NCBI GenBank assembly: GCA_947095535.1
Contig: OX352773.1
Location: 206,170,093-206,234,092, forward strand
Direction of reading: 5' to 3'
From: Poecilobothrus nobilitatus
Lineage: Eukaryota; Arthropoda; Insecta; Diptera; Dolichopodidae
DNA length: 64,000 nucleotides
The notes under the pieces are model-generated. The model did no database searches. It saw only the letters and a program-made list of their open reading frames with translations, and was not told the DNA's origin. Below, piece by piece: positions 1,621 to 58,965 of this stretch (positions within the stretch are counted from its first letter, which is position 1; the number at the start of each line of letters is the position of its first letter). The position numbers and the translations under genes are program-made.

Positions 1621-2594
1621 ACAAGACAGAATGTAAACCAACGGTTTTTAAAAGTGCACATTTCCAAAACACAATACAAACTGTTTAGAATTGTGGCTTG
1701 CACCAAAATTTGAAAATTTCATATAAGAAAAAATGTGAAAAAGAACTTTTTTAGAATTTTGAGGGGCTGTAAATTCGGAACCCTATATAACTAAGAAAAA
1801 CCGTTAATACACGTAAAAATATATTTCTGGAGATTTAATTTTTATGTCTTGCCGAAGAAAAATGTGTACAGGTGCCAAAGTTACAGCTGTTTAAAAATAG
1901 CAAATTTTCTATTTTTAAGCTCTAATAGCACCTAGGTCGTCCAAAACAATTTTTTCAGAAAACTTATATACTAATTCTAAAAGTTCTTTCTTGTCTCAAA
2001 ATTTCAAGTCTCTATCTAAACGCGTGTCGGAGTTATGAAGAAAAAAAATGAGGCAAAATATGGTTTTCACATAACGGTAAATTTAAATACTAAATTTAAA
2101 AAACTTGTATAATTTTGATATTGCTTTAGAAAGGTAAAAAAAAAAAATGGGGCCTCAGTGACCTAGTGGGTAAGAATGGGTTCGAATCCCACACACGTCG
2201 TAAGAGTTATTCCCCCTTACGACATTTACAGCCACACCTGAACAGGAAAGGCTGTGTTATTTCCTGTCCACATTTATGTGGCAGAGAAATACATTAAAAA
2301 AAAAAAGAAAGGTAAAATTCCTGTCGAATGGCTTTTTCAGATTGAAAAAATGTTAAGCGGAACATGAAATATACGACAAGACTTTTTCATAGTTTGAGGG
2401 ACTGTAGTTCCTTGATGGATGGCGCTACATGAAAAAGTTGTTCCACAAAAATAATTTTTTTATGATATCTACCCATGGTTAAAATTTTTTTCTCTGCCTT
2501 TAACGGTGTAGAAGTTTTATAAACAGACGGGCGGCGGACGGATACAGTGAAACTAATAGGCACATTTTTTAAAATTTTTTTTGGAAATATGCTA
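1621..2594 (-). mobile_element. Family A DINE-like element, copy A1 (carries nested SINE)
   Basis: Read on the minus strand, the 5' end (2594) is a hairpin of GCATATTTCC against AAATGTGCC. A GTCCGCCGCC-type block, 'cttctacaccgtt' and a run of 'taccgttatg' and 'aatttgc' blocks follow. The 3' end (1621) has the inverted GGAAATGTGC arm, the short hairpin AAACC-gtt-GGTTT and the terminus ACATTCTGTCTTGT. The same ends recur at 32980-33767 and 48327-49625, which fixes the boundaries. It encodes no protein. The plan matches Drosophila DINE-1/INE-1 elements, so I infer a non-autonomous Helentron-type repeat. A SINE is inserted at 2140-2305. Confidence 0.7.
2140..2305 (+). mobile_element. tRNA-type SINE, copy S1, inserted in element A1
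   Basis: Starts GGGGCCTCAGTGACCTAGTGG, an A-box-like stretch, followed by a perfect B box GGTTCGAATCC at about 2178-2188, so the head is tRNA-derived with an internal Pol III promoter. The body holds three hairpins: GTCGTAAG/CTTACGAC, ACAGGAAA/TTTCCTGT and CCACAT/ATGTGG. It ends in an A-run. It is flanked by a 12-bp target-site duplication AGAAAGGTAAAA at 2128-2139 and 2306-2317. Family A copies at 33.5 and 49.3 kb are uninterrupted here. Compared with the other copies it lacks about 35 nt between the A and B boxes. Confidence 0.85.
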
Positions 2595-2727
2595 AAAGCA
2601 TCAAACACAAATATTCTTCGTATGTTTTCCTATTCATTTTCGCGTATTTTGAAATGAAAAGATAAGTGTGCACTATATTCTATAATATATATAAGTTGTC
2701 TGTCCGCTAACATAATATTTAAAAAAA

Positions 2728-2897
2728 ATGCATGTAATAAACATAAATGTTACAAGGAAATTACACAGCCTTTCCTTTTGCTGTAAATGTTGTAAGGGGG
2801 AATTATTTTTACCAAATGTGTGGAATTCGAACCCACACTCCCTCGATATTTACAACGTATTTCATACGCTCCCACCCATTAAGCCATTGAGGCCTCT
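2728..2897 (-). mobile_element. tRNA-type SINE, copy S2
   Basis: Minus-strand copy of the same SINE: head GAGGCCTCAATGGCTTAATGGG near 2897, B-box-like GGGTTCGAATTCC, then the CTTAC and AGGAAA...TTTCCTT body. It is diverged and some hairpin stems are broken. It lies about 130 bp beyond element A1. An open frame over it on the plus strand is accidental. Confidence 0.8.
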
Positions 2898-5911: not shown

Positions 5912-5923
5912 CAGTAATAAAAA

Positions 5924-6113: not shown

Positions 6114-6125
6114 CAGTAATAAAAA

Positions 6126-8034
6126 TAAAATGAGCAGTGTATTCTACTGTTGACTACTCACCGATACCTAAAACATATAAAAATGCACAGTCCACATCAT
6201 TTTGTAAGACTACATCCACATGAATTCAACAAAAAGGTATTACAAATGTAATCAACAGCATTTAAAGCATATTCAAATCCTGCTAGTAAGTTATATATAA
6301 AGAAAATTATAGAAATTATTAAAAGAGAAATAAATGGAAATTTTTCTACACTAAGTATAAAATTTCTTTTTAAGAATAAATTTCGCAACTTCATCATTAG
6401 ACAAAAAGGAAACCAAAAAATTCTTGTTTTACTCCGTTATATATTTTTCCTTTAGTAATTTTCACATTACCTGTTCAAGAAATAGCAGCAGACAAAATTT
6501 CGAACATAAAAGACTTATTTTCCTTTTCCACGAAAAGAAGATGATAAACTTTTTTAGTGTTTTAAAATTAAGTAAATTTAGTATAGTAAGAAATTTGAAA
6601 AAATGATTTTATTGTTTTTAATAATGTGTTAATAAAAATTAAAGCAGTTAGTTTTTGCAAAAGAATATTTTACTTTTTCGAAAAAGGATTGACTTCATAA
6701 TTTAGTATTCTTTGTTCGTATCTTAAATAGGAAGTCTCAATAATAACATTTTCATAATATGCTAAAAATCCATTTAATAATAATGAAGAAAAAACTTTAA
6801 TAAAGTCTAATCCTATAAAATTGCTTTATTATACAAATTTTTTAACTGCAAATTAAAGAAAAACAGATAGTGTTTAAAATCGAGGATTTTTAAACCAGTA
6901 CTTTTCCAAAATACTGAGGCTTGTAAGTAAAAATAAAATGAATAGGAAAATAATTGCCGTAAAATGTAAAAATAAAATAAAATTTTAAAAATTAACTCTT
7001 GATATAAGCAGAAAAGAATACAATATGAGTTAAAAACATTCTAAATATATTTTATTTTAAAAATAGCGGTTTCTTTCTTAGAGGAATTGTGAAAAATAAA
7101 ATGAAACCTTCATTAACTTTAAGAGAGCACTATTTAGTTAAAAAGTGTTGCACTTGTATTGAATTATGGAATTTTCTCTTCAAAATACAAGTGTTTAGTT
7201 CTAACTATATTATTGAAGATAATTCCGTTGGAGGTTTTAAATTTTTTTTCGAGAGTTTTTTCTGATTTTAAGAATTTTCATCCTGGTAATCAGTATAGCA
7301 CTATAGACAAAAACGTTCTCCAGCTAAAATTTTATTTTAAATGAGATTTATTCATGAGTTAAATCACATTCTTTAATCTGAAACAGAATTAAAATTTTGT
7401 AAACATACATCCTGACGGACTGACTATGTGCGTGGACAATAAGCAAATTTTTTAAAATTTTTATTCTATATATATGCAAAAAACTAATTAAATAAGAAAC
7501 TTTTGTAGTTAAAGATTTTCTTCAAGCAGATTAAAAGTATTTTCTTTATGATGCCTGTAGCTTTAGTACTTATTCTTTAACTTTATTTAATGTATTTAAA
7601 AAAATCAAATTTTCATTATTACATAGAATACACCTGAAAAATACACTTTGAAACTACACCTAAAAATATACTTAGGGAAAAAAAAAGAGAATATAATAAT
7701 CCTGTAAGAAACAAAAAAAATATAATGTATACAAGAAAAAAACTGATAAACCTAACGATAACTCCATTTTTTTTTCATTGTTATAAAAGAAAAAGGTATA
7801 AACTTTTTTTTTTGTTTTTCGTAGGTACAAAAATAAAATGTAAAGAAACTTTAACAATGAAATTTCTTTTAAATATCTTGTAAAAATAAGGTATTCACCT
7901 AATGGAAAATTGAACGAAAATTGTATATTAGTTTTTCTTTAATAAAATATAACATATACCTATATTAAGGTATATGAATTTAATTTTTTATATTTAAAAG
8001 AGGTACAGAGTGTTAAACAATAAAAGGACTATTT
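6126..8034. other. AT-rich non-coding stretch, possible very old family A remains
   Basis: No gene. At 7151-7193 the words CACTTGTATT and AATACAAGTG form a 10-bp inverted repeat with a 23-nt loop. Between about 6870 and 7480 scattered similarity to family A is visible (TTTTAAACC and CTTTTCCAAAATA at the left, GACGGACTGAC at the right), but it is too decayed to call firmly. The rest is low complexity. Confidence 0.4.
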
Positions 8035-13786: not shown

Positions 13787-14612
13787 AAAACGATGAAAAG
13801 TGCAGTAGAGTAGACTGTGTCAACTCTGGGATACCCGTATGAACGTAATATACCCTGTTTCTATAAAACTTGACCATCTTTTAAAAACTTTCAGATGTTT
13901 TAGTACCGACGTTAACTATATAGATATATTTATGTAAATTGTAGAGTTGTATGACAGCTACCCGAATCCATTGCACAAGCACAACAAAATTTTACAGAAG
14001 TTATGGCCAAAAAACGTTACCATCATTTGCAAGATTTCAGACGCTAACTTCATTATGTTCCAATAGTTGCAAGAAGGCTGAACCGGCAACTCTAGACCAA
14101 TCAATTTTAATGAAAGTTTTTTGCATGTAACTCGACACCTCTTTACAAAACTTCAGATACCTAGACACTGAGTTATTTTCATTTAAAAAGAGAAGTTGTA
14201 TGGCAGCTACCCGAACCTGTCGGACCATCACAACCAAATTTTGCAGAAGTTGTTGCCTAAAACTTGATCATCATTTGCAAAATTTCAGATACCTATAGCT
14301 TGAATAGATACTGAGTTATTTCCATATAAAGAAAGAAGTTGTATGGCAGCTACTCGAACCCGGCGACTGAAAATGCTGAAATTAAATAGCAAAACTAACG
14401 ATTTTGCAAAAGTGACGTAAAAAGAATTTCAGCCTCCTAGCTCCTTTATTTTTGAGTTATCATGCGGACGGAGGAACGTACATGGCTTAATCGACTCAGA
14501 ATTCGATTCCGAGCCGATCCATACCTTTGACACTATATCTAGCTCGACTCCTTTAAGGTGTCACAAACGTAATGGCAAATTGATTATACTCTTGAACATA
14601 GTTCATACGGAA
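13787..14612 (-). mobile_element. Family C DINE-like element, copy C1
   Basis: Read on the minus strand it begins at 14612 with GTATGAAC-tat-GTTCAAG. It then has the conserved lead (TTTGTGACACC, CGAGCTAGATATAG, GGTATGGATCGG, a GTACGTTCCTCCGTCCGC block) and internal units centred on AGCTGCCATACAACTTC, of which two at about 14193 and 14335 are 142 bp apart. It ends at 13787 with GTTCATACGGGTAT, the hairpin AGAGTTGAC/GTCTACTCT and a CATCGTTTTTT terminus. The outermost 5' arm is partly lost. No protein is encoded. Confidence 0.75.
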
Positions 14613-15457
14613 CATTTATGCAATATTTATTAAAAATTAAGGATTCATAATATATAAATGCTACAAGTGAAATGACAGACAAACAAATTAATTTATATCT
14701 AAAAAAAAAACTAAAATATTACCTCACACTACCATTTTTGTAAAATTTTTTTTTCTTTTGATATCATCATCCATTCTTTAATAATATTAAAATTTTATGA
14801 TTTTTTGTTTTTTTGTTGGGCTTTAAATATTAAACATTCGAAACCCAAACCAAATTACCAACCCAAAAAATGCTATTCATATGTATTTTTAAGTACAATA
14901 TGGAACCAGCAAATGAAAACATAAAAATATAAATGAGTATAACAAAAAAATATTATATGGCGAAAATGTCGCATTTATATTTCATGTTTAGAATATTAAA
15001 ATAAATATAAAAAATACAAAAATTTTTATAGAAACAAAATAAAAAATAAAAAATTTTAAAGAAAAGAAAAACCTAAATATGTACACAAAAAATCAGATGA
15101 TCAATTGTTCTTCCACATGGGATATTTATAAGTAACATTTGATCAAAAAAAACAAAAAAAAGGTTTTTATTTAAATCGGTTTCTAGTAGAAATATCAAGG
15201 ACGTTAAACATTTATATAATATTGTTTAAATAAAGAGAATTGATGATATCTTATACCTATATTCTACTTTTTTTTGTTACTCAATATTCACCGAACAATA
15301 TTATGTTATGAATGTGGAATTTCGAATAACTATATAACATAAGTTTTGTTTATTTTAAAAAAATACATCTATAGTTTTATTTATTAATTTAATATAACAA
15401 CTCATAGGCTTTTTAACTAACTTTCCTCTCAGTATTTTGGTCATTTTCGGTTATTCT
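14613..15457. other. AT-rich non-coding stretch
   Basis: No feature recognised; A-rich runs at 14990-15160. Confidence 0.65.
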
Positions 15458-15465
15458 CGAATTTT

Positions 15466-22929: not shown

Positions 22930-23490
22930 TATTTTAATTTTTTTTTCCTATATACATACAAGCATTGTTTAGTAGTTTCAGTCCGTCCGTTTCTTCGGTT
23001 TAAGAAACTTCTACACCATTTAAGATGAATAATTATGGATAAATCTCTTAAAAATTTAATGTTGTAAAATAAATTTTTTTATGTAGCCTCAGCCATTATC
23101 GAGTTGCGTCAAAACTGAAAAAAGCTCTATTTTCAAAAGTGTAATAATCTTATGTTCTATTTAATACTTTTTCTTTCTAAAAACTCCAATGACAGAACAT
23201 TTTCTTTCTGATAAAACAATATAAAAATTTTTCGGAATTTAGTATTTAAATTTACCCTTATATGGAAACTAAATTTTGCAAGAAGTAACTTTGGAATTCT
23301 TTTTGTCAGAACTTTGAAATTTTAAGAAGAGAAGAGAATGATTTTTGAAAAGAACGTAGAGCTCAAAAATTAAAAATTTGTTGTTTTAGAAAATTTTAAC
23401 TTGCACACTTGTCGTAAGTAATTTACAAAAATTAAAGCTTCAATATTATTTTTTTACATATATCAAAAACTTGTCTAATTATACAGGATT
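22930..23490 (+). mobile_element. Family A DINE-like element, decayed copy A5
   Basis: Plus-orientation relic, opposite to A1-A3. It shows the GTCCGTCCGT block at 22981, AACTTCTACACCATTT, ATGTAGCC, AAAAAGCTCTATTTTC and AGTATTTAAATTTACCCTTATATGG in family A order. The 5' hairpin is unrecognisable and the 3' end is lost. Confidence 0.6.
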
Positions 23491-24869
23491 TTCTTTCTTA
23501 ATTATTCAGGATTCACGTATTATTGTATTGTAAAATTCATTTTATTATTTTCTTTTTTTGGAAATTTACATGTTTAAAAACCTTGATTTTACTAACTGCT
23601 TTATTTTGTTAAAAATTATAGAATCCAATTAATATGATAATTTCATTGTTTTTTGTTGTTTTTCTCCCGTCAATTCTTATAATTTTCATTTTTTATTTTT
23701 ATTATTCCATAAAAAAGCAAAAAAGAAAAAAAAAACAGAAACTTAACCTCACCTTGTGTTCTTTTTCTTTTTTTATTGTTATTTTAGTATTTTAACATTT
23801 TATATTTTTTATTTTGTTCGTTTTTCTTTTCTTTTAAATATTACTTCTTGTTTTTTTTTTTTTGGCTTCTTTTTTATTTAACAATAGGAAGAAAAAATTT
23901 GTTTATATGTTCTTCTCTTTTTTTTCATTTTCTTTTAATATTCAGTTCTCTTTCTCTTTGTATACATATTTCATGTTTTTAATCCTTATATAATATTTAT
24001 CAAAGTATTAAAAATAAAATATAACATATAATAAAATTGTGTACATATTATTTTGTCGGCTAGCCAAATGATCAGATTTACTGCATACATGAAAGAAAAT
24101 CATGATTTTGTTATTTTTAGAAGTATGTAAGAAAATTTTTTTATCAAATTATCAGTTTATTTAAAATTTTGAAAACTATTACCTATATTAGTTCTTAGTG
24201 TGTTTTTTTTCATTGTTCTATATGAATCAATTCAGATTTCTCATCAATTCAGAATTTTTTTCCGTACAGTTAAAGAAAACAAAAGTTTAAAGGTGAAAAC
24301 ATACGCAGAGCAACAGACGACGACGACGGTAGACGAATTTCGTTGGTGAGACACAATACGGTCGAAAATTCTGCTGCGAAAACAATTGTTAAAGGCAACA
24401 TATTTATTGACATGTACAAATGTTTTAAAACTAAAAAAAAGGATGAGTAAAATTGCGAAAATTATTAAAATAATTTCAATTGCTGATGTTTCAAATGTAA
24501 AAAAAATTAATGGGGTTAAATTGCATTAAATGGCGTTAATAATATTTTCAGCGGGCGACGTTTTTCGATTTTATTGTTGGAACTCTAATACAAATGCATG
24601 TGTTTTAAACAGTTCATGCAACACCACGTTTAAACGCCAACAAATTTCTTTCTGAATGTGTTTTCACTTCAAATAATTAAAATGCTAACTCTCGTACTTA
24701 CTAATGATTATGTTAAGTTGTGACTTTTGTTTTTAACAAAATTTAATTAAATTTTAATTTTGAAAATTCAAAATCTGGAAATTTTTAAATATCCTTGCAA
24801 TTTTTGTTATAAGAAAAACATTAAAAAATTAATAAATGTAAATGGTCAATTTTAATTTTTTTTGGAAAT
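23491..24869. other. Polypyrimidine-rich stretch with a possible exon near 24.3 kb
   Basis: From 23560 to 23960 the plus strand is unusually T/C-rich. At about 24298-24347 there is a more complex piece, GCAGAGCAACAGACGACGAC and onward, ending TTG|GTGAGA. It resembles an insect 5' untranslated exon followed by a splice donor. No start codon or downstream exon can be assigned, so I leave it unannotated as a gene. Confidence 0.35.
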
Positions 24870-32979: not shown

Positions 32980-33767
32980 CAAGACAAAATGTAAACCAAC
33001 GGTTTTTAAAATCGCACATTTCCAAAAGATAATACAAATTATTTAAAATTGCGACTTGCACCAAAATTTGAAAATTTCGTGTAAGAAAAAATGTGAAAAT
33101 AGAACATTTTTGCAATTTAAAGGGGCTACAAATCCGGAATTCTATATATAGCTAAGAATAACTGTTAATACACGTAAAAATATATTACTGGGTCTTTAAT
33201 TTTTATATCTTTAAGAAAAAATTGTGCAGGTGTTTAAATAGTAAATTTTCTATATTTGAGCTCTAAAAACTAATAAACACGGGGTGATCCAAAAAAATTT
33301 TTTAAGGAAACTTATACTAATTCTAAAAGTTCTTTCTTGTCAAAATTTTAAGCCCTTATCTAAAAGTGTGCCGGAGTTATGAAGGTAGAAAAATCATGCA
33401 AAATTTGGTTTTCATATAACGGTAAATTTAAATACAAAATTTAAAAAACTTGTACAATTTTGATATAGAGTTACAAAGGTAAAAAAAAAATTCCTGTCGA
33501 ATGGAGTTTTCAAATTAAAACATTTTAAGCGGAACATGAAATATGCGCATTTAAAAATAGGGCTTTTGAAAGTTTGAGGATCTGGAGATTCCTGATGGAT
33601 GGGGCTATATGAAAAAGTTGTTCCACAAAATTAATTTTTTTATGAGACCATGGTTAAAATTTTTTTTTCTTTATCTTTAACGGTGTAGAAGTTTTGTAAA
33701 CAGACGAACGAACAAACATAGTGAAACTAATAGGCACATTTCTTCAAATTTTTTTTGGAAATGTGCT
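32980..33767 (-). mobile_element. Family A DINE-like element, copy A2
   Basis: Minus orientation. The 5' end at 33767 is the hairpin GCACATTTCC/GAAATGTGC. 'TTCGTTCGTCTGTTTAC' and 'CTTCTACACCGTT' follow. The 3' end has the inverted GGAAATGTGC arm near 33020, the hairpin AAACC-gtt-GGTTT, then ACATTTTGTCTTG at 32980. It has no SINE at the site used in A1, and one copy of the internal unit that is doubled in A3. No coding sequence. Confidence 0.78.
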
Positions 33768-33891
33768 AAAAAAATAAATGAGTAAATTAATATGACATTA
33801 TTTATTGATTTATGTCAAAATTTGATTGACATACAAAATGTATACAATATGTTTTCATATAAATAGACAAAATCTACTTTTTATACCCGTA

Positions 33892-37030: not shown

Positions 37031-37600
37031 GAGGAAAAATGATTAATTGACTCTGTCAACTCTAGGATACACGAACAAAATAGATGCTGTTTTGAGATAA
37101 CATTTAATCATCTTTTAACAAAATTTGACTTATGCAAATTTTTTGTTGTGCGACAGTTATACGAAGCTGTCAGTCCAAACCAAAATTATCATAAAACTGG
37201 ATCTTATTTACAAATTTTTAGTTAGGCATTTTAGGATCTTATTTTCAAATAAATATCCTAAGATGCCTAAATTAATTAAATACCTTTATCTAAGGATATT
37301 TATTTTACAGTTGTATGACAGCTACCTAAACTTGTTACCCTAGACAAAACAAATTTTTTGAAACCACCGTTAGAGCTTGTTTAATTCCAAAATCAAAGTT
37401 TTATATCAAAATAAAATTGTGAAAATTACTTTATTTTTGAGTTATCATGCGGACACATGAACGGATGAGCGTATATAGCTAAATCGATTTAAAATCTAAT
37501 CCTGCGAGTAAGAATATATATAAGCTTTATATTTAGCTCTATATCTATCTTGTTTCCTTTGCAGTTTCACAAACGTAACTAATGGCAAATTTTTTTAATT
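37031..37600 (-). mobile_element. Family C DINE-like element, copy C3 (decayed, 5' end lost)
   Basis: The 3' end is clear at 37043-37075: hairpin TTGAC-aga-GTCAA plus the GTGTATCC arm. Internal units with GTTGTATGACAGCTACC near 37310 and the lead (GAGTTATCATGCGGAC in reverse, TTTGTGAAACTGC, AGATATAGAGC) follow. The terminal TATACCC hairpin is missing after GCAAATTTTTTTAATT. Confidence 0.65.
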
Positions 37601-39690: not shown

Positions 39691-40144
39691 AAATGGAACG
39701 CTAATGTTTTATTGAAAAAATTAAAGCCATCTCTAAAAAGATCGCAAACACTATATGAACAAAAATTAAAAATTACAGATTCGATAAATTTCAGTCCCGA
39801 TCACAAAAAACAAAAACAGTAGTTTTTTAAATTCTTATCTTGATTTAGCAGAAATATTTTAATTTTTTAATTTAAAAATATTTAAAATTTTAAAGGGTTT
39901 GAGGTTAAAGTTTACGCCTTAAAAAGGTAACTAATCCCCCTTATTAACTAGTTAACCCTTAAAGGTAACAAGAACAAGGTAACAAATAAGTTTTTTATTT
40001 TTTAGTTGTTTCAAATTGGATTTTGTTTTCAGAAAAGTGTGCTTTTCGATTGTTGTGGAAAAGTTGTTGCTTTACGAAAGTTATTAAGTAAATGGCGATA
40101 TCTAGGTTTTAAATTTAATTATTTCTCTTATAATAATTGCTTTT
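39691..40144. other. AT-rich non-coding stretch
   Basis: No gene. The 12-bp perfect palindrome TTAACTAGTTAA lies near 39945 among GGTAAC words; its meaning is unknown. Confidence 0.55.
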
Positions 40145-40989
40145 TATACCCGTATGAACTATGTTCAAGGGTATAATAAATTTGCCATTACGTTTGTGAC
40201 ACCTTACAGGAATCGAGCTAGATATAGTGTCAAAGGTATGGATCGGCTCATAATCGAATTCTGAGTCGATCAAGCCATGTATGTCCGTCCGGCCGTCCGT
40301 CGGCACGATTACTCAAAAAATAAAGAAGCTAGGAAGCTAAACACTTTTTTACGTCACTTTTGCAAAGTTATTAGTTTATTTAAATCCAGCTTTTTCAGCC
40401 GCCGGGTTCGAGTAGCTGCCATACAACTTCTTTCTTTATATGGAAATAACTCAGTATATATTTAACCTAGGTGTCTCAAATTTTGCAAAATCGTGTCGAG
40501 TTACAGGTCAACAATATCTGTAAATTTTGGTTGTGCTGGGGTGAGAGGGTCGGGTAGCTGCCATACAACTTCTATTTTTAAATGTAAATAATTCAGTAGT
40601 GTCTATTAAAGCTAGTTATCTGAAATTTTGTGAAGAGATGTCCAGTTACATGTCAAAAATTTTTGTAAACTTTGGTTTGTCTAGAGTAGCCGGTTCAGGC
40701 TTCTGGCACCTCTTGGATTTAAAGAAGCTAGGCGACTGAAATCTTACAAATGATGATCAAGTTTTATGGCAACAACTTCTGTAAAATTTGGTTGTGTTGG
40801 TGCAATAGATTTTGGTAGGTGTCATACAATTCTATAATTCACATATATATATCTCGGTAGTTATAACATCGGTAATTAAACATCTGAAATAGTTTAAAAG
40901 ATGAACAAGTTGTATAGAAACAGGATATATTACGTTCATACAGATATCCCAGAGTTGACACAGTCTACTCTACTGCAGTCTTTCTCGTT
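40145..40989 (+). mobile_element. Family C DINE-like element, copy C2 (complete)
   Basis: The 5' hairpin TATACCC-gtat-GAAC-tat-GTTC-aa-GGGTATA is followed by TTTGTGACACC, CGAGCTAGATATAG, GGTATGGATCGGCTC and a GTCCGTCCGGCCGTCCGTCGG block. Internal repeats centred on GTAGCTGCCATACAACTTC lie near 40412, 40554 and 40697, about 142 bp apart, with a decayed one near 40815. The 3' end has GTTCATACAGATATCCC, the hairpin AGAGTTGAC/GTCTACTCT and TCTTTCTCGTT. It is the best copy for defining the family. No coding sequence. Confidence 0.82.
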
Positions 40990-43900
40990 GAATTTTATAA
41001 TTGATTTTCAAATTTCTCAGAAGCTTATAAAACTAGATCAACTCCAGTTTTATTTCTCGTTTTAAGCGTTTTAATTCTCTGATTATTATTTAAAACAACT
41101 AATGAACCCTCCTTTATATATGATTTCACTCCTCAGTTTTAATTATTCTTTTGTGGGATGTATTTTCATTACAAGTTTATTGTAAAATCATTATTATATC
41201 TTTATACTTTCATTTCTCAAATCATTCTTTTATATTATATTCACGTCATTTATAAAAACAATGAACCCTAAACTAATTTCTGAATAAAAATTGTATTACA
41301 CTCTTAAATATATACATATTATATATGTATATAAAAATATATAAAAAGAAAATTTATTAGGACCACATAATATATAGACTGTACGTCTAGTCTCATGTCT
41401 ATTTAACAAACGATTTATCAAATGCATCTAGAAAATACAAAAAATTATGCGCAGAGTTGCATAAATTAAAAGGTATAAAATATGAATTTTATTTCTAGGG
41501 TAATTTTTTATTTTTGTATTAGAAGTCATGTAAATCAATATATGTACAAAATTTAATTTAGATAACATAACTCATAACATAATATAACTGTTTTTTTTTC
41601 CATTTCGGTTTTTTCTTTTTTCATTTTTTCAATAGAAAAATCAACCCGGTAATCTAATCAAAATGTTAATTTAATTTTTCTGTTTTATTTTTGTTTTTTC
41701 GTTATATTTTTTTATTAATAATTTCTGCGCATTCATCATTTTACATTATAAAAGAATTTATTTTCATGTCATAAATTAAAATGTTTAGTTCATTACTTTT
41801 AAACATTTTTTTGTTGCACCCTATTTATTGTGTATGTTTTTATGTTGATGTCTTCTCTCGCTCTACATTTATACACATTCTTTGTTTTACAAATATTAAT
41901 TACTGATTTGGGTGAACCTCCTTTCAATGTATATTTTTTTTTTCTAATATTTATGTTGCGTCTAGTTTAAAGTAATTTCAATTTATATTGATTCATACCC
42001 CCGATTTACATTGCAAAAATCTACCATGTAAATCGTGGTTATGACTGAATATATACCTATTTAATTTAAGTATATAGATTTCATTGAATTTTCTCTATTA
42101 AAAATCCATTTGTATTGAAATTAATTATAATATATAATATATACTATATATACATATATACATATATACATATATACTAGATAATAAAAAATAATATGCA
42201 ATTTCACAAGTCCTAAAAGAATACAAGTCCCTTTTTTTTTAAATTTCAATCAGTTTTTTGATGACCCAAATTTTTTTACTTATCGTTTTCCCTTTCTATT
42301 TCTTTCTCTTACATTTATACATACATATTTTCATTTTAAAATCAGGATAACACTTTTTTTTTTAATAGGGATATATATGTATAATGTATATACTCGTATA
42401 TATATGTTTGTATGCAATTTACCACCTTTTTCAATCTTTTGATAGTTTGTTTTCCTTTTTCTAAATTCGAATAGTTGTTATTGTTATTGTTGTGTTCTAA
42501 ATACCTTTTGAATACACATATGTGTACATATGTATGTATTTATCTATCTACATAATAATATAATATATAATATATGAATTTTTTTTTTTTTTGTTGGTAA
42601 TTCGATTTTTCATATATTTTTCACAACAGTTTTGTATTGAAGCAACACAAAAAAAAAAAGAAGAAAAGAAAAACAAAAAGAGTTATTGTTAAGGGTGTAT
42701 CCTACTGAAATCTGTACAGTGTTAAAAGAAAAATAAAAGTTTGGTTAGGTATTTTTTGTGTTGTTTTAAAAACAAAAACTAAATTTTTATTTTGTTTTAA
42801 ACAAGGATAGCAAAGATTTTATTTATTTTTTTTTTTTTTCCAAATTTTAAATTATACACTTAAGAAAAATTAAATGAAAATTTATCTTATTTAGAGAATT
42901 TTAAATTACAGAAAAAAAAAAGATAACACACACCATTTACATTTTTGTATCGTTTTGAAAAGTTGAAATTTAATTTCTTTTTTTTTTTTTTTTACTTTAT
43001 TAATTGACTTTTTAGCAGTAAAGTATTTTGAAAAAAGAAACACTTTTGTTTTATTTAATCATTTTTCTTTTTCTTTTTTTTTTGACATTTACATATCGCT
43101 TTGTTTGAAAAAAAACTTTGAAGTTTTTTTCTGTTTTATTATGTACAAAAACAAAAACCATAAAAAAAAACACAATAAAAAATTTTAGGATAATATCACC
43201 CGACCGCTTATATGTTTTAATTCGAGATATTTACAGTATATTTTTTAATTTTTTTTATTTTTGTTGTTATCCTTTCGAATGATGATTTCAAACTGACATT
43301 TTAAGGAAAATGAAAATTTAGTTTTATTAGTGGGGAAAAGCTTTTTATTTTTCATAAATAGAAAAGCTTTATTTTGTTATATTTTCTTTTATGTATATAA
43401 AATAAACAGTAGGAAAATTAGCTTTTAATATTGTTTCATTTTCTTTCATTTTTTATAGTAAGGAAAATTTTGGTTTGTGAAATTGAAAAATATGTAGTTG
43501 CGGTTTAAATTTTTTTGTGTAAATTAGTCTATTTTGTGGCATAATATACAAATATACGTTCTAAAAGAATAATAAGTAGTGACATCTGTTAATTTTTTTT
43601 TAGAATTACGAAAAATAAAGAAAATTTGTATCATAGTTTATTTGGCTAAAAAAAAAAATACTTTGCTAAAAGAATTTTTTTTTTTTGTAGTCCTAATCGT
43701 TAACAGGGTCAAAGTTCTAATAAATGTTATATTTTTAAATGGTTATATTTGAATTTATATTAAATATTTTTTCAATTTAAAATTCACAAGCGGCCAAATT
43801 TCTTTAGCTTTATAAATTAAATGTTTGGGAAATATGGATATTCGTTTTTGGCTGGAAAAATTTCGGTTTCAGATAACTGTAAATTTAATTTTTTTTTAAA

Positions 43901-48326: not shown

Positions 48327-49625
48327 CAAGGTAGAATGTAAACCAACGGTTTTTAAAAGCGCACATTTTCAAAACTCAATACAAACTGTTTAGAAGTGTG
48401 ACTTACACAAAAATTTAAAAATTTCATGTAATAAGAAAAAACGTGAAAATAGGACATTTTTGAAATTTTGAAAGGCCGTAATTCCGGAATCCTATATAAC
48501 TAAGAAAAGCCGTTAACACACGTAAAAATATATTATTGAATCTTTAATTTTCATGTCTTGCCGAAGAAAACTTTGTACAGGTGCCTAAGTTACAGGTGTC
48601 TAAAAATAGCAAATTTTCAATTTTTGAGGCGTAATAACTCTTAAAGAGGAGGTGCTACCAAAAAATTTTCTGAGGAAACTTATACTAATTCTAAAAGTTC
48701 TTTCTTGTCTCAAAATTTTAGGTTCCTACCTAAAGGCGTGCCGGAGTTATGAAAAAAGAAATTTCATGCAAAATGTGGTTTTCACATAACGGTAAATTTA
48801 AATAGTAAATTACAAAATATTACATAATTTTGATATTGTTTTATATAGATAATAAAATTTTCGATCTTCTGGCGGTTTTAGATTGCAAAACTGTTACGCA
48901 GAGCCTGAGATATATACATCTGAAAATGGGGCTTTTTCGCAATTTTGAAAAGCTGCAACGTTGGAACTCTTTACAACTAAAATAAACCTTTAACACACGT
49001 AAAAATATATTACTCTAGCTTTAATTTTTATATCTTGCAGAAGTAAAATTTGTACAGGTTCCTAAGTTGTTTCCTAAGGTGTTTAAAAATAGCAAATTTT
49101 CAATTTTTAAGCCCTAGTAGCTCATAAACAGGGGGTGGTCCAAAAAAATTTTTTGAGCAAACTTATACTAATTCTAAAAGTTCTTTCTTGCCTCAAAATT
49201 TCAAGCCTCCATCTAGAAGCGTACCGGAGTTATGAAAGTAGAAAAATCATGCAAAATTTGGTTTTCACATAACGGTAAATTTAAATACTAAATTTAAAAA
49301 AATTGTATAATTTGGATATTAATTTACAAAGATAAAAGAAATACCTGTCGAATGACGTTTTCAGATTGAAAAAATCTTAAGTAGAACATAAGATATATGC
49401 ATTTAAAAATAGGGCTTTTTCAAAGTTTGAGGGGGTGTAGCTCCGTAATGGGAGGGGCTACATAAAAAAGTTGTTCCACAAAATTATTTATTTTATGAGA
49501 CCTACCCATGGTTAAAATTTTTTTTCTCTTTCTTTAACGGTGTAGAAGTTTTGTAAACAGACGACGGACGGAGGGACAGAGTGAAACTAAGCACATTTTT
49601 TCAAAATTTTTTTGGAAATGTGCTA
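48327..49625 (-). mobile_element. Family A DINE-like element, copy A3, with internal tandem duplication
   Basis: Same ends as A1 and A2: 5' hairpin GCACATTTTTTC/GGAAATGTGC at 49591-49625, GTCCCTCCGTCCGTCG block, inverted arm near 48362, hairpin AAACC-gtt-GGTTT and ACATTCTACCTTG at 48327. The internal unit, marked by TAACACACGTAAAAATATATTA and CTAAAAGTTCTTTCTTG, occurs twice about 480 bp apart (48514 and 48991; 48691 and 49174). A1 and A2 have one. No coding sequence. Confidence 0.78.
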
Positions 49626-49631
49626 AAAATT

Positions 49632-50180
49632 AAAAATTGTGACTTACACCAAAATTTGTAATTTCTTTTAGAACTTTATATAATATAAGAAAATATTGTA
49701 CAAAATCTAAAAACACTTCGGTACTCGGTGACCTAGTGGGTAAGAAAGCATAAAATATGCTGTAAACACTGAGATAGGGTTCGAGTTCGCACACATTGTA
49801 AGAATAATTTCAGCTTAAACACACTTGAAAAACAGAGGTTATACAATTTACTTATCACATTAAGGTAGGACAATAAACTAAAAGAAAATAATAAATGGTT
49901 TTTTCAATTTTTAGAAAATTCTAAGAAAATTTAAGAAAATCTTAATTATAGAAAAGTTGTTACCATATATGTAAAAATATTATATTGAAGCATTAATTTT
50001 TACGTTTTACTTTGAAAATATTTGTAGGGGTGTCTAAGAAAAGCAAATTTTCAATTTTTAACCCATAATACTTCTTAAACAGGGGAGGTGCCAATGTCAG
50101 GTTCTTCTCACAAAATTTCAAGGTTTTGTCTAAAAGTGTTTCGGAAGCAAGAATATGAAGGAAGTAAAATCTTAAAACAC
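49632..50180 (-). mobile_element. Family A, decayed copy A4, interrupted by a SINE
   Basis: It starts six bases after A3 with AAATTGTGACTTACACCAAA, the family A sequence just inside the 3' arm. After the SINE at 49717-49865 the family A unit resumes (ATGTAAAAATATTATATTGAA, GCAAATTTTCAATTTTTAAC, CAGGGGAGGTGCCA, AAAATTTCAAGG). It is more diverged than A3, so it is older. Confidence 0.6.
49717..49865 (+). mobile_element. tRNA-type SINE, copy S5, nested in family A copy A4
   Basis: Head TACTCGGTGACCTAGTGGG with the A box, then AAGCATAAAATATGCTGTAAACACTGA, then a B box GGGTTCGAGTTC at 49777-49789, and a decayed body. It keeps the segment between the boxes that S1 lacks. The tail is poorly preserved and I found no clear target-site duplication. 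Confidence 0.72.
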
Positions 50181-51305: not shown

Positions 51306-53734
51306 TCTCATAATAAATCTTTATGTCATTTTGATTGCTGCGAAATAATTTTTTAAATGAAATTTCAATAATGAGCTTATCACGAATTATGTGTTATTTT
51401 ATATTAAATTCAAAAATATGCCCATTATAAAATTCTTTTTAATTCGTATTTTATAAAAATTATTTGCAAAAAAAAAAAAATATGATAAAAATTATGTAAT
51501 AAAAAATATTTCATTTAATACTTATAGGAACTGGCGTACTGCAAAATAAAATACATAATGTAATGTAATGTTCAATGTTTTAAGATGAAGATATATTAAT
51601 TATTCTCATATTTTAATTTTATTTTGTTTTTGTGCCATACCTTTTTCAGTATTTTTATCTTTAACATACCATAAACAATGGTCAATGGTAAAAAAAATTT
51701 TTTTTTTTAAATCTTTATAATATTTTGAAATTTGAATTAATCTTCAATAAAAATTATATTATTTTTACGAAATGTACCATTCACTAATAAATTATTTCTA
51801 ATCACTATTCATGCTATACTCTCCTCTTGCTATTTGATAGTAGGATAGCCCACACCTGTTATATTTAGGGTCTGCGATCAATTATACACCCCAATTATAG
51901 TTTGTCACATGCTAAAGCTTGCTATTTACACTAAAAAAGTTATTTATTAAAAGTTAGTCTAATTAAATTAAAAATAAGCTGATTTTAATGGAAGAAGCAT
52001 TCTCAATTGCTTTTTCCATCAAAATTCTCAAATGATCTTAATTGCCAACAATAATTGCCATCACTATGAATTCAGAAACATATAATCTACCTACAGTTAT
52101 TTTAATACCTATTTAAAGTGTAGTGCATATGTTTTATGCCTATGTAAGCAATAAATTTTAAAGGTAGCGAATCATGTGACTTTATTTCATTTACCCAAAA
52201 TATTATTTGACTGTTTGGATGTTGTCTGGGTTATCATTTGACTGGATTTTTCATTTGTAAAGTGACCTCCAGTCAAATAAAATATAGGTTTGTGATAATA
52301 ACTCCAATTTTAACTATTGTTATATTTCAATAATTAATTGTATTTATATCTAAATTAAATTATTTATTTGATAGTTGTCGGAAGAAAGATAGAAGGTTTA
52401 AGTTGTTTCAAAACATTTTTTGTCCTTTTCTTCAATTAACAATTCCACTTCCGAACGATTCAAAGTTGGAAATTTTCTGTTTCCGTTCGGTCTGTCTGTT
52501 TACAAAACTTCTACTGCACTGTAAAGTTAAAGCAATTAAATTTTAACCACGACCAGGTCTAAAACGCAGCTTATACAGGCGTTTATTGTTAAAAAAATCT
52601 CTCTATTCTCAATATATAAATAACAAATTCTGCTTAATATTTTCACAATTTAAAAACGTCAATATAAAACCAATATAAAAGTTACATAATTTGTTACATT
52701 TGGGTTTTTAAACCTATCGTTATTCGTTATGTATACCCACCGAACAATTTTAGTTAGAACTTTAAAATTTTTAGAGGCGAAAGATCTCATAAGAATAATA
52801 TTAAAAAGGACTAAAATTAACATTAAAGGACATCCTATTAATATAAAATTTTCTTTTGTTTTTAACTTATCTCTAACTTATATGAGAGTTAGACTAAATT
52901 CATTTTAAATTATGATTTTATTCTATAAGTAAAATTCGGCCAAATGATAAAATCTAATTTCGATTTTAAACTTATACTTTTAATAAATTGAATATACAAC
53001 ACACCAATGTAAAGAAACAAATCAGATTTTTACGTCTCATTTGAATTGTTTAAATAAAAAAATAAATAAAACAAAAACATTGGAAACGTCCTTAAGAAGT
53101 AATTGACATTTAAATAAATTACCAATTATTTTAATTTACTTAAATTTTTTTTTCTTTTTCCTTATTTCATTAATATCCAATCTTATATCAGTTAATTGTT
53201 TATCATCCTCATCATAATCATTATCATCAGTATTATTCAATATGACAAAAATAAATTAACAAAAAACAAAAAGAAAATCCACCGTAAATGTTACTTATTA
53301 CACTTTGAAGCTGGACTTGACCCAATTTTTTTTTTAATTTATTCGTTGTTGTATTACACATAAAACATCATAAAAATTATTTTACTTATTACGTTTTTAT
53401 TTTTTTTTTATTTAATTAAAAAATTTAAACCAGCTAAAAAATTATTTTACAATTATGCTGTCAATAAAGAAAATTTAATTTAATAAAATAAAAAAATATG
53501 CAACGAACAAGGCAAAAGTACAATCACGGTCATACAATCCTTGTAATCTGTAATAAAAATCGAACCATATAACATATAGTAACCGTGAAAAAAGTAACAA
53601 AATATGCAGTAGATATACGTATAAATATTTTAAAATAAAAATTTAAAAATACTTTACACACAATTTATATATACATTATTATTACATTCTGCATAAAATA
53701 TGAAGATGTTAATGACCTTAGATAACTGCTTCAT
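51306..53734. other. AT-rich non-coding stretch with one hairpin and a family A scrap
   Basis: An 11-bp perfect inverted repeat, ATTTGACTGGA at 52236-52246 and TCCAGTCAAAT at 52268-52278, could form a hairpin with a 21-nt loop. ATTTGACTG also occurs at 52205. A plus-oriented family A fragment is listed at 52465-52570. Nothing else is recognised. Confidence 0.55.
52465..52570 (+). mobile_element. Family A DINE-like fragment, copy A6
   Basis: TTGGAAATTTTC, CCGTTCGGTCTGTCTG, TTTACAAAACTTCTAC and TTTTAACCACG match the 5' lead of family A in order. The rest of the element is absent. Confidence 0.55.
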
Positions 53735-55315
53735 TATACCCGTACGATAGGATCGGGTATAATAAAATTACTCCTCCGTTTGTAACACCTCGAAATAAGC
53801 GAGCTAGATATACCTTCAAAGGTATGGATCGGATCAGAAAAAAATTCTAAGACTTTTGAGCCATGTCCGTCCGTCCGTCCGTCCGTCCGTCAGCACGCTA
53901 ACTCAAAAACTTAGAAAGCTAGAATCTTGAAATTTACACAAAATATTTTGGGAGTAATTTGTAGGTTCCCTATTTTTTTTGGTTGAGTTTGGACCAAGCC
54001 TTAGGGTAGCTCTCGAACACCTAACTTTTAGATCCCCACATTTTTTTTGCAATAGAGCTATGAAATTTTAACTGCTGATAGATCTCACAAAAATATTAAT
54101 TTTATTTTTAATAACTTTTTTTTGTAGCCCCACCCGTTACGGAGCTACAGCTCCCCAAAGGTTCAAAAAAGCTCTATATTTAAATTGTTATAGCACAAGT
54201 TGTATAAGGTATATCTTCATTTTGAAAACGCCAAACAATTTCTACTTTTATTAGCTTTAAAAGTATATATACAATAAATATATATTTGTGGCATACGGTG
54301 TCTTAATTTACCGTTATGCGAAACTAAAATTTTGCAAAATACTTTAACCCTTTTATCTTCTGAACGGGTTAAGCTGGAAACTTGAAATTTTGACAGAAGT
54401 TAGATCTTTGAAAATAATTTCAGAATTCAGAAATTTTTTTTGTATCACCCCCCGTTTAGGAGCTGTAAGGAGTCAAAAACTGAAAATTTCCTATTTTTAA
54501 ACACCTGTAACTTGAACACCTGTTAAAATTTTTTTGAAGTAATACACAAAAATTAAAGCTTCGACATCATACTCTTATTTCTGTTAACAACTTTTTTTAA
54601 TAATATAGGGTTACTTTATAATTGACGAAAGTGTTACTTGATTTTTTCAAATTTTCTAACAAATTTGTTCAACAAATTTTTTCCATTTTGTTTTACTCGA
54701 TAATTTGAAATTGTTGAGGATATAATGCGTAGTACATAAAAATGCAAATAAATAAACAACATAACGGTTGCTTGAAGAATTTTTATTTATATGATATTAA
54801 TATATATACATACGTATATAATATCATGTTTATTTACATATCGTATATGTCACTAGTGAATGAATGATAAGAGTATAGATGTATATTATATAGCGCCGTA
54901 TTTGCATACATATATGTATTTTATTGTACTTATAAGAAATTATTCTGTCAATGGAATATTTAAATATAATATAATATAATATTTAAAATTATATTTACTA
55001 TTTTGTACTAAGTAAATTTAATATACATTTACCGCTTAGTATTAAATGGTACTATAGAATATTTGAAAAAGTTTTGGATTGATAATCGTTATGTGAAAGG
55101 TTAGAATCTGCTTTTGAAGAATGTACATATAAACATATAGTTTGAATATATGTACAACCCATAGTTCTAGAAATTATAAAATTCGCCCAAATTATTTTAA
55201 AATACTAAAATATTAAAAAAATAACATTGTGAGCAGAGTGACAGGCTGTTAACATACTAACGGTTCGTACGGGTATCTAAGAGTTGACAAAGGCAACTGT
55301 ATTCTTCCTCGTTTT
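53735..55315 (+). mobile_element. Family B DINE-like element, copy B2
   Basis: Aligns end to end with B1 at 33892-35458, with scattered substitutions. The 5' hairpin TATACCCG/CGGGTATA is intact. The GTCC tract has six units against five in B1. The 3' arm TCGTACGGGTAT is intact, but the 3' hairpin reads AGTTGAC-aaa-GGCAACT, so one base pair is lost. The terminus TTCTTCCTCGTTT is kept. It is non-coding. Both copies have T on the outer side of each end, consistent with a T-T insertion target. Confidence 0.85.
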
Positions 55316-55806: not shown

Positions 55807-55905
55807 GTTCTTGCTTGGGTAGAACATATACTAAAATTGGAACTATACAGAGAAGATTAGCATGGCCCCTGCGCAAGGATGACACGTGAAGCGTTCCACA
55901 TTTTT
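55807..55905 (+). ncRNA. U6 spliceosomal snRNA-like sequence with 8-nt deletion (likely pseudogene)
   Basis: It matches insect U6 from the 5' end, GTTCTTGCTTGGGTAGAAC, which still folds as the 5' stem with a G-U pair. It continues through ATACTAAAATTGGAAC, the ACAGAGA box, the AGC of TTAGCATGG and the internal stem-loop GGCCCCTGCGCAAGGATGAC, to GTGAAGCGTTCCACATTTTT. Against Drosophila U6 it has a few changes in the 5' loop, one in GGAAC(T)ATAC, and lacks 8 nt (CAAAATCG) between GACACG and TGAAGCG. That makes it about 99 nt rather than 107. U6 is the catalytic core RNA of the spliceosome and is made by Pol III. The deletion and lack of a clear PSEA point to a pseudogene; there is no A-tail marking retroposition. 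Confidence 0.9.
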
Positions 55906-57913
55906 ACTTCTAGAACACCACGAAATATGGGAACAAGTATAAATAAAGTCACAAAGAATAAAACGCACACATAAATAGAAAATATAAGAATATAATTAGT
56001 TTTAATATAAAAATAGATTAATTAGATAATAAGTTTTTTAAGCTGCCTCACATGCTCTTATGGTAACCGGCCTAAACAAATTAATAAATATGTATTTGCA
56101 CATTTTATTAATAAAAATAAATAAATAAATCTAAAATATTCATAGGATATTGTTGTCTATTCCTTCTTCCAAACAACAACAACATAATTCATATAATGAT
56201 AGTGTATAGTTTTATATAATCAGAAGCTATAATCACCAGATAATCAATAAGAAATTAGTGGATTAGATAAACTATATTTTATATCGACACCTTTCGATCT
56301 GTATCGATGTGTAGCTCATAACAAATATAATGCATGCTAATATAATTTTAGTTAAAAATTTAAAATAATAATTTTTTGATATTATTAAATTTTTTTAAAA
56401 ATTTATTTAAAAAATTATACCTATGCAGAATATTCTGGTATAATAAAACAAAACAATCTTCTTATTTACTTATATGCTCCAAAAATATCACTTCGAGTTA
56501 CAGAAATAAAAACCGATACAACTTTTGATGGCAAGATGTCAAGTAATTAAAAATTTTACTTTTTTTTTTGAATTAATTTTAAATATTTTTTCATAATTTT
56601 AAAATGAAGTAAAAAAACATAAGATTTTATTCATATTGATCTATTTCTGAGCAAAATAATATACGTTTAAGGTTTATCTACATTTTAGACTGCAACCATG
56701 ACTTCTTTATATTAAATGACGTTTTCAGAGAAACTTATTTAGAAGTTTATGTGATTGCGTACCTTATATGATTTATTAATAATTAAAAATTGATGGCATA
56801 TTCGTTTTATATCGCCTACACTTATATGGTGTTTAAATAATTAATGTTTTTAACAACCATTTGTTTGCATATTATTTAACACTTTTTATAAAATATTGTT
56901 CGTAATCATTCTAATTGTTTGTATTATTAAACTGATGATATTTTTTTTTTTTTTTTAAATGCACATTGATTTCGTATATTCGTATTCTAAAATCTATTAA
57001 AATTCGTATTCTAAAATCTTATTAAATTGTGTAAAATGTAAAATAATGAAAAGTTATTCTTACACAAAAAATTATATTTAAAATCAAATAAAATTTACTT
57101 TATAAGGAATTATGCAAAATATTATGAAATTTATATCTTACTATTACAAATTACTTCAAATAGACTATAATTTATCTTAATATCGTTATATTAAATAAAT
57201 CCCAGATTTTATGCAACAATTAGCTAGGTTACGTGGACGAACACCTTATATTAAAATACTTATATAAGAATAACGCCATATAAATAGCTTACCAACATAA
57301 TAGACGATAAAAAATTGCTACCTTATAGTTAATGATCTTAGTACATTAGGATTCAATTAAATTATTTATTCAGAACCTGTTAAGATATGGAATTTAACAG
57401 AGGTATGCTTGCAAGATTTTGTGTCAAATTGTTTTATATCGAAATATGAAAGTTCTGTTTTTTTTTGCTCTGATGAGAATTAATCGAAAGTTTGACAAAA
57501 ATTCAAAGAATAACGAAAATTTGAAAAAATTCTGAATAAATTGACTTATTTCTTACAAAACTAATTATTGTTTTGTTAAACATTTTTTTTGTATAATACT
57601 TTTATGATTTTTTAAAATTAACTATTTATGAAGCCAAAAAAAACGTTATGGCATTTTTTATATATTTTTATACTACTCTTACACAATAACACTACTATAT
57701 TATATAATTTCGTACAAATTACTTTGTTTTATTTTCAGAAAAATATAAAAAACGCTAAAGGTATTCTTAAAACCAGACAAATTCTTGAAGTTTATTAATA
57801 AGATGTGTTAATTACTGCATTTCTAACACTAAAAACCGTAATGCGTTAGATAATAATCTTGTTTCAGTATTAAAACTAAAATTTCAAAATTACAAATTTA
57901 AATTCAGCATTTT
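55906..57913. other. AT-rich non-coding stretch
   Basis: No feature recognised on either strand apart from a near-duplicate ATTCGTATTCTAAAATCT at about 56980-57020. Confidence 0.6.
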
Positions 57914-58965
57914 TATACCCTACACATTAAGTATAGGGTATATTAACTTTGGTATGGTGTTTGTAACCACCAAAAAGAAGCGAGTAAGGTATAGACATGT
58001 ATATATATTCTGAATCAGGATCACCTCCTGAGTCGATTTAGAGATGTCCGTCTGTCCGTACGCCCGATAATACAAAAAATAATGATGCTATCTTGATGGA
58101 ATTTATACTGTAGGTTAACAATGACTAAGATATGGAGGGGATTGTAAATAGGTGAAATCGGACCATGCGTTCGAGTACCTCCCATACAAGTCCCAAAACC
58201 GAATACGCATATATTCGAAATTAATAAGGATAGAAACCTAACATTTTGTACGAGGGTGTGTTTTCCTGAACCCCTGATATCCCTAAAATTTGAGATGAAT
58301 TGGAGTGGTTGTTCGGGTACCTCCCATACAACTCCCAAAACCGAACAAGAATATCTTCGAAATTAATATAGATAGGAACTTCAAATTTGATAGGAGGGTG
58401 CTGTTTCCTAAATCCCTGATTTACCTAAAATTTAAGATGAATTGGAGTGGTCGTTCGGGTACCTCCCATACAACTCCCAAAACCGAACAAGCATATCTTC
58501 GAAATTAATAAAGATAGAAACTTCAAATTTGGTACTAGGGTGTTGTTTGCTGAATCCCTGATTTGTCCAAAATTTAAGATTAATTAGAATGGTTGTTCGG
58601 GTATCTGCCACACAACTCCCAAAACCAAACAAGTATATCTTCGAAATTAATAAATATATAAACTTGAAATTTGATATAAGAATGTTTTACTCTGTTGATG
58701 TCTCTAAAATTTGAGATGAATTGGGGTGGTGGTCCGCGTGCCTTCACACACTTCCCAAGACCAAACTAGCATATTTTCGAATTTAATAAAGATAGAAATC
58801 TGAAATTTTGTACAAAGGTTGTAAAAGCATTTATTTTTTTAGCTTAGTTATATTAAATACCTAACTAATATAACTTATGGATTTTTAATTTAATTTGAAT
58901 TTTTTAGGTGTAGGGTATAAATAAGTGGGTTGCATCGACTTACTGTTACTTTTACTTGTTTTTTG
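57914..58965 (+). mobile_element. Family D DINE-like element with five ~141-bp internal repeats
   Basis: 5' hairpin TATACCC-tacacattaagtata-GGGTATA, then a lead close to Drosophila DINE-1 as I remember it (TTTGTAACCACCAAAAAGAAGCG, ATATATATTCTGAATCAGGATCA, GAGTCGATTTAGAGATGTCC). GTCTGTCCGTACG follows. Five tandem units centred on GTTCGGGTACCTCCCATACA start near 58169, 58311, 58453, 58594 and 58731. The 3' end has GTGTAGGGTATA, the inverted 5' arm, then AAGTGGGTTGCATCGACTT and a TTACTTGTTTTTT terminus. Frames across the repeats, including 105 codons on the minus strand, are by-products of the tandem array, not genes. Confidence 0.82.

What the first reader, a model, noticed from the sequence alone, without database searches (positions are those of the whole stretch)
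1621..58965. Four sequence-distinct repeat families share one DINE-1/Helentron-like architecture
Families A (1621, 32980, 48327), B (33892, 53735), C (13787, 37031, 40145) and D (57914) each have a 5' hairpin whose arm (GCACATTTCC, TATACCCG, TATACCC or TATACCCTACAC) recurs inverted near the 3' end. Each then has a GTCC-rich block, internal units, a short 3' hairpin and a pyrimidine/CTYGTTT-like terminus. The arms and hairpins differ while the plan is kept, so ends appear to coevolve within a family. Family A does not start with TATACCC and would be missed by a search on that motif.
Basis: partly seen in the sequence, partly recalled or inferred. Interest (0 to 1): 0.75.

Follow-up and report, generated by a model that had tools for sequence, protein, structure and literature searches.

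The report
DINE-1-like rolling-circle transposons in fly DNA
This stretch of fly DNA carries several short, non-coding jumping elements built on the known DINE-1/Helentron plan, and the one less expected feature is that two families with unrelated ends share the same middle.

Summary
The elements are real and the DINE-1/Helentron reading is largely right, with three corrections. (1) Family A lies on the minus strand: the quoted starts (1621, 32980, 48327) are its 3' ends, as are 13787 and 37031 for C. (2) The families are not all sequence-distinct: B, C and D share a homologous ~200-nt 5' block, B and C also a 3' end; only A has unrelated ends. (3) A 3' hairpin beats shuffles in B1 and C1 only (8 copies folded), not in A or D. 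Four further A relics turned up (near 7306, 22969, 49630, 52477). The plan, and several types with different subTIRs in one genome, are published for Drosophila DINE-1 and for HINEs. No Rep/helicase match was found in 67 ORFs of 70 aa or more. The host looks like a brachyceran fly (nearest gene: Condylostylus, 73%). The least expected result is a ~555-bp module, ~70% identical and in the same orientation, inside both A and B despite unrelated ends, as if ends and middle were exchangeable cassettes. Genome-wide consensus, empty-site and partner searches could not be run, because the genome server did not answer.

The parts
1618..2597 (-). A1: family A element, 5' end at 2597, 3' end at about 1618; interrupted by a SINE at about 2150-2306
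32978..33772 (-). A2: family A element, best preserved; 14-nt subTIR GCACATTTCCAAAA
48326..49629 (-). A3: family A element with a 483-bp interior unit in tandem
22969..23600 (+). A4: degraded family A copy (profile match 22969-23489; A-like 3' end near 23560-23600, borderline)
   Evidence: E 7.7e-44; 3' end 1 of 300 shuffles as good
49630..50171 (-). A5: partial old A copy without preserved ends, abutting the 5' end of A3 and interrupted by a SINE
   Evidence: profile match 50171-49966, E 2.1e-16; 3'-profile match 49667-49630, E 9e-4
52477..52790 (+). A6: relic of an A 5' part
   Evidence: E 9.8e-11
7307..7468 (-). A7: relic of an A 5' part, weakest
   Evidence: E 1.3e-6; 2.6e-7 with the 5' profile
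33880..35457 (+). B1: family B element, TATACCCG hairpin, subTIR ATACCCGTACGA
53732..55313 (+). B2: family B element, 95% identical to B1
13787..14620 (-). C1: family C element, 5' tip eroded
40143..40991 (+). C2: family C element with 145-bp central repeats
37031..37600 (-). C3: old, diverged TATACCC-lineage copy without a clear 5' hairpin
57912..58965 (+). D1: single family D element, subTIR TTTATACCCTACAC, 142-bp central repeats x4.5
34206..34758 (+). Module X in B1 (about 70% identical to A3 49520-48965 minus)
54063..54612 (+). Module X in B2
48965..49520 (-). Module X in A3

Best explanation
These are non-autonomous rolling-circle transposons of the DINE-1/HINE (Helentron) kind in a brachyceran fly, in two terminal lineages: a TATACCC lineage (B, C, D) and a GCACATTTCC lineage (A). 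Shown here: the anatomy (T-flanked 5' subTIR with partial inverted repeat, GTCY block, central repeats, inverted subTIR 35-50 nt before the 3' end), sharp copy ends, no coding capacity found. Inferred from published work on Helentrons: a Rep/helicase/endonuclease made by an autonomous element elsewhere nicks at the T-rich 5' end, recognises the subTIR/hairpin, displaces one strand up to the 3' end and inserts it between Ts without a fixed target-site duplication. A and B carry the same central module X with unrelated ends; the likeliest history is a recombination or template switch that put one middle between two sets of ends, direction unresolved.
For: subTIRs above chance in A2, B1, B2, C1, D; 5' hairpins above chance in 5 of 6; GTCY block and CTYG-T(n) 3' ends; tandem interiors of 483, 145 and 142 bp; Ts on both sides of the 7 copies with both ends, no fixed duplication; sharp boundaries in A1-A3; no other coding in 67 ORFs. 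The published DINE-1 feature list matches. Shared X: 70% over 563 columns, score 249 against a maximum of 36 in 20 shuffles and 31 in the opposite orientation, with no homology of A ends to B ends beyond GTCC and composition.
Against: No autonomous partner seen. 3' hairpins of A, C2, C3 and D are not above shuffles at 5%. Short non-T direct repeats between own flanks are in excess: sum 39, only the true pairing of 5040 reaches it; P 0.0013 to 0.006 by null. A lacks the conserved 5' block of B/C/D. The A3 subTIR alone is not significant (86/500).
Confidence: 0.8

Rival explanations
1. The shared middle of A and B arose by independent capture of the same host or satellite repeat by two unrelated elements, not by exchange of ends (concerns module X only).
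For: X holds a degenerate internal duplication with an offset of about 310 bp (score 81 against a maximum of 57 in 100 shuffles) and A3 has it in tandem, as a satellite-like source would.
Against: The confident copies of X in the window lie in A or B elements or A relics (A5 has no ends left to tell), and the orientation to the ends is the same in A and B. Only 64 kb was seen.
Confidence: 0.25
2. A and B are sister families whose ends diverged beyond recognition while the middle stayed similar.
For: Both keep the same plan, and X is about 70% identical.
Against: Within B/C/D the ends are the conserved part (B-C 5' block 74-77%) and the middles are unrelated; faster end than middle evolution would have to hold for A/B alone.
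Confidence: 0.15
3. Family A is a MITE of a cut-and-paste transposon that looks similar by convergence, while B, C and D are DINE-1-like.
For: Direct repeats of 9 nt at A2 and 8 nt at A3 flanks, in excess over three nulls together with the other copies; weak 3' hairpin; ends unrelated to B/C/D.
Against: A1 shows only 4 nt; the repeats at A2 and A3 imply different element 3' ends; the 3' repeat is internal by 35-42 nt; GTCY block, CTTG-T(n) end and module X are as in the DINE-1-like families.
Confidence: 0.07
4. The pattern is a chance product of AT-rich sequence.
For: Eroded copies (A3) have subTIR matches that shuffles reach (86/500); several 3' hairpins are at chance.
Against: Multi-copy homology over 0.8-1.6 kb with sharp ends and the best copies at 0-1 of 500 shuffles.
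Confidence: 0.01

Closest known systems
DINE-1/INE-1 of Drosophila (Yang & Barbash 2008, PMC2374699; passages, section 6 part 1 and section 7 seen)
   Same: 13-bp-class subTIRs with partial 5' inverted repeat, GTCY microsatellite, central repeats, no ORF, TT sites; D. willistoni has three types with different subTIRs. B, C and D share the ATACCC start with listed subTIRs.
   Different: Sequences of the families here are their own; family A has a non-TATACCC subTIR and no block homologous to B/C/D; 3' stems of A and D are short. No direct alignment to a DINE-1 consensus was possible.
HINEs/Helentrons (Thomas et al. 2014, PMC4067079; abstract, passages, sections 6 and 27 seen)
   Same: subTIRs near the 5' end and 38-60 bp from the 3' end, T-rich insertion without duplication, several subTIR families per genome. 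By their rule of 11 identical subTIR bp, A, B and D each count as a family from single copies; for C the exact match within one copy is 10 bp.
   Different: No Rep/helicase/endonuclease partner seen here; the 3' subTIR lies 35-50 nt from the end.
Cg_HINE elements of the Pacific oyster (PMC7492417; passages and section 8 seen)
   Same: Modular elements: flanks plus central tandem repeats in fixed relative orientation.
   Different: There a central-repeat cluster is consistently tied to one pair of flanks; here module X sits between two unrelated pairs.
DINE1-like Helitron2_Cv and Helitron3_Cv of Calliphora vicina (PMC3630058; passages seen)
   Same: DINE1-like features in a non-drosophilid fly.
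   Different: Sequences not compared; not available to the tools.
DINE-TR1 (as described in PMC9957191; passages seen)
   Same: ~150-bp central repeats with conservation concentrated in the first 30 bp; C and D repeats (145 and 142 bp) share mainly a ~23-nt stretch, 20 of 23 identical.
   Different: No DINE-TR1 sequence was available for comparison.

Membership tests
DINE-1-like (PMC2374699) | subTIRs of about 13 bp, the 3' one internal | tested here: met
   14 nt in A2 and D, 12 in B1 and B2; 8-10 nt left in A1, A3, C1, C2; 35-50 nt from the 3' end
DINE-1-like (PMC2374699) | Partial inverted repeat beside the 5' subTIR | tested here: met
   5' hairpin above shuffles in 5 of 6 folded; unclear in A1 and C3
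DINE-1-like (PMC2374699) | GTCY-rich block near the 5' end | tested here: met
   Seen in A1-A3, B1, B2, C1, C2 and D by reading; interrupted in A2 and C1; eroded in C3
DINE-1-like (PMC2374699) | 3' stem-loop with 7-11-nt stems | tested here: inconclusive
   B1 has a 7-bp stem (9/200 shuffles), C1 a 5+3 stem (3/200); A has 5 bp and D 5+2, at chance
DINE-1-like (PMC2374699) | Conserved 90-bp core of block A | not tested
   No DINE-1 consensus sequence was available. B, C and D share a ~200-nt block among themselves; A does not share it
DINE-1-like (PMC2374699) | Variable central repeats, no significant ORF | tested here: met
   Tandem units of 483, 145 and 142 bp in A3, C2 and D; no Pfam match for ORFs of 70 aa or more inside the elements
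Helentron/HINE (PMC4067079) | T-rich insertion without target-site duplication, shown at empty sites | tested here: inconclusive
   2-9 Ts on each side of 7 of 7 copies and no fixed duplication, but excess short direct repeats; no empty site could be sought
Helentron/HINE (PMC4067079) | Autonomous partner with Rep/helicase/endonuclease and the same ends | tested here: inconclusive
   None in 67 of 67 stop-to-stop ORFs of 70 aa or more in the window; genome search did not complete
Canonical Helitron (features as given in PMC4067079) | 5' TC and 3' CTRR ends, no inverted repeats at both ends, insertion between A and T | tested here: not met
   5' T(n)ATACCC or T(n)AGCACA, CTYG-T(n) 3' ends, matched subTIRs, T-flanked
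Cut-and-paste MITE | Terminal inverted repeats flanked by a fixed-length target-site duplication | tested here: not met
   3' repeat 35-50 nt internal; flanking direct repeats of 3-9 nt, implied ends inconsistent within family A

The most novel reading that the evidence does not exclude
In this fly's Helentron derivatives the terminal cassettes (5' block plus 3' end) and the central module are exchanged as units: one middle (X) rides between two unrelated pairs of ends (A and B), and one lineage of ends (B/C/D) rides with at least two unrelated middles. Non-autonomous elements could then outlive a lost or silenced transposase by acquiring the ends of another Helentron family.
Probability: 0.4. 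Interest if true: 0.5.

Novelty: new member of a known kind. Interest (0 to 1): 0.3.

Why it matters
For annotation: A-type elements are invisible to searches seeded on TATACCC, although A leaves the most traces of the four families in this window (7, against 2, 3 and 1). For biology: one middle between unrelated ends gives a natural test of which parts of a Helentron derivative are needed for mobilisation (the ends) and which are cargo. The architecture itself is known.

Tried and rejected
Canonical Helitron and cut-and-paste MITE readings: rejected on ends and flanks, with the caveat of the excess short direct repeats. The A/B sharing as a nested A insertion in B: rejected, because the A 5' profile matches B only from about its position 105 on, apart from two matches over the GTCC run at E 0.33 and 0.47, and the A 3' end has no counterpart in the B 3' end. 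A compensatory-change argument for the B and C 3' hairpins: dropped, their stems differ by mismatches rather than clean compensation (read). Relatives outside the genome: five viral contigs patterns gave 0, 1, 0, 0 and 0 matches; the one (L001) matches the window over 31 nt. One genome contigs pattern gave L002, a 25-nt match in the GTCC region. The phage collection gave no match to the B 5' block. These collections hold viral and prokaryote records, and may leave out records near the window's genome, so they say little about fly relatives. The X-module tree did not resolve whether B lies inside or beside A. A literal text search for a DINE-1-type hairpin found nothing.

Papers: PMC4067079 (abstract, passages, sections 6 and 27), PMC2374699 (passages, section 6 part 1 of 2, section 7), PMC3630058 (passages), PMC7492417 (passages, section 8), PMC9957191 (passages). 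Other papers were seen as search listings only; two searches listed none.
Full report
What the window is. 64 kb of AT-rich DNA (GC 19-29% in 2-kb steps). The one long ORF is a GMC oxidoreductase (45422-46705 minus), best match 73% to Condylostylus longicornis glucose dehydrogenase, followed by other flies; Condylostylus is a dolichopodid, Brachycera. A U6 RNA lies at 55807-55905. I read the host as a brachyceran fly; the species is not established. The host genome could not be searched: 14 identical requests did not complete.

The elements. Repeats lie at the nine quoted places. A profile search of the window adds four A relics: 22969-23489 plus (E 7.7e-44), 50171-49966 minus (2.1e-16), 52477-52790 plus (9.8e-11) and 7468-7307 minus (1.3e-6). 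The 13 pieces together cover about 11.2 kb, 17.5% of the window, SINEs inside A1 and A5 counted in.

Plan. The better copies have a T-flanked 5' subTIR with an inverted partner close by, a GTCY-rich block, a variable interior (tandem units of 483 bp in A3, 145 bp in C2, 142 bp in D) and an inverted subTIR 35-50 nt before the 3' end, which is CTYG plus Ts in A1-A3, B1, B2, C2 and D and ATCG plus Ts in C1. Exact subTIR lengths and shuffle counts are in the observation check. 5' hairpins are above chance in 5 of 6 folded; 3' hairpins reach under 5% of shuffles in 2 of 8 folded, B1 and C1. A scan for the plan recovers B1, B2, D and A2 and nothing else; it misses A1, A3 and the C copies (mean 0.54, maximum 3, in 100 shuffles).

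How distinct are the families? Shuffle tests on 200-nt 5' blocks put B1, C2, C3 and D1 in one homology group (6 of 6 pairs at 0/500). Of the 8 pairs of A2 or A3 with these, the lowest counts are 1/500 (A3-B1) and 8/500 (A3-C2), which I put down to the GTCC run and composition. In 60-nt 3' ends B1, C1, C2 and C3 are homologous (6 of 6 pairs at 0/500); D1 matches C1 at 0/500 but B1 at 19/500, C2 at 61/500 and C3 at 494/500. C and D interiors are also related (nhmmer E 1.2e-21 over block and repeats), the repeats mainly through a 23-nt stretch with 20 identical. So B, C and D form one lineage by their 5' block, and A a second.

The shared middle. A3 110-665 and B1 327-879 align at 70% over 563 columns (score 249; maximum 36 in 20 shuffles; opposite orientation 31), in the same element orientation; A1 and A2 match B1 there too (scores 132 and 129). 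Similarity begins inside both 5' blocks and fades before the 3' ends. The A 5' tip and 3' end have no counterpart in B beyond the GTCC run. Within B/C/D the ends are the conserved part and the middle varies; between A and B it is the reverse. I therefore favour exchange of cassettes over divergence of ends, with independent capture of X as a live alternative. In a tree of eight X units A1, A2, A3a and A3b group (91/92) and B1 and B2 group (100/100), with A4 and A5 unresolved, so the direction is open. In oyster HINEs a given central repeat was consistently tied to one pair of flanks, while flanks could carry different repeats (PMC7492417); X departs from that pattern. I saw no report of such a case in the listings or in the passages read; those searches cover open-access papers only.

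Target sites. Seven copies with both ends readable (A1-A3, B1, B2, C2, D1; C1 and C3 were left out because their 5' tips are eroded) have 2 to 9 Ts on each side; a random position has TT just upstream with probability 0.17. Against the reading: the longest non-T direct repeats between own flanks (4, 9, 8, 4, 3, 7, 4 nt) sum to 39. No other pairing of the seven flanks reaches this (1 of 5040 permutations, the true one), and P is 0.0013 against T-run sites drawn at random or nearby and 0.006 against contiguous T-run sites. Lengths are not constant, and in A2 and A3 they imply different element ends, so I do not call them target-site duplications; empty sites are needed.

Coding. All 67 stop-to-stop ORFs of 70 aa or more were scanned against Pfam (the GMC ORF as its 427-aa ATG version): GMC domains, two reverse-transcriptase and two DUF matches, all four below Pfam's cut-offs, and no Helitron, helicase or endonuclease match. 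Shorter relics would be missed.

Compared with what is known. Yang & Barbash define DINE-1 by these features, list subTIRs such as ATACCCGTTACTC and TATACCATACACC, and report three types with different subTIRs in D. willistoni. Thomas et al. tie DINE-1 to Helentrons and describe several subTIR families per genome. DINE1-like elements are recorded in Calliphora. No direct alignment to any of these was possible. The finding is thus a set of new members of a known kind; the modest surprise is the shared middle.

Noticed in passing
2150-2306, 2741-2896, 5927-6113, 15465-15650, 49690-49895: Five copies of a tRNA-derived SINE-like repeat (A/B-box-like head, short body, poly-A in some). The copy inside A1 is flanked by a 12-nt direct repeat AGAAAGGTAAAA, so it inserted after A1 (tRNA origin judged by eye, ARAGORN reports no tRNA gene).
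   Followed up: partly
49600-49670: The 5' end of A3 directly abuts the interior of another old A copy (A5) whose 3' end is missing on both sides of A3.
   Followed up: partly
40405-40677 and 58168-58819: C and D central repeats (145 and 142 bp) share a 23-nt stretch around CCATACAACT (20 of 23 identical), reminiscent of the conserved start reported for DINE-TR1 repeats; not compared directly.
   Followed up: partly
11890-12120, 17998-18393 and 27767-28590, minus strand: Scraps that read like non-LTR retrotransposon reverse transcriptase; two give RVT_1 matches below Pfam's cut-off, the others are judged by eye.
   Followed up: partly
44667-46705, minus strand: A GMC oxidoreductase (glucose dehydrogenase-like) gene in at least two exons.
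   Followed up: partly
55807-55905: A full-length U6 snRNA match about 500 bases downstream of B2.
   Followed up: no
24875-25030, minus strand: A possible further X/A relic, at E 0.03 only.
   Followed up: no
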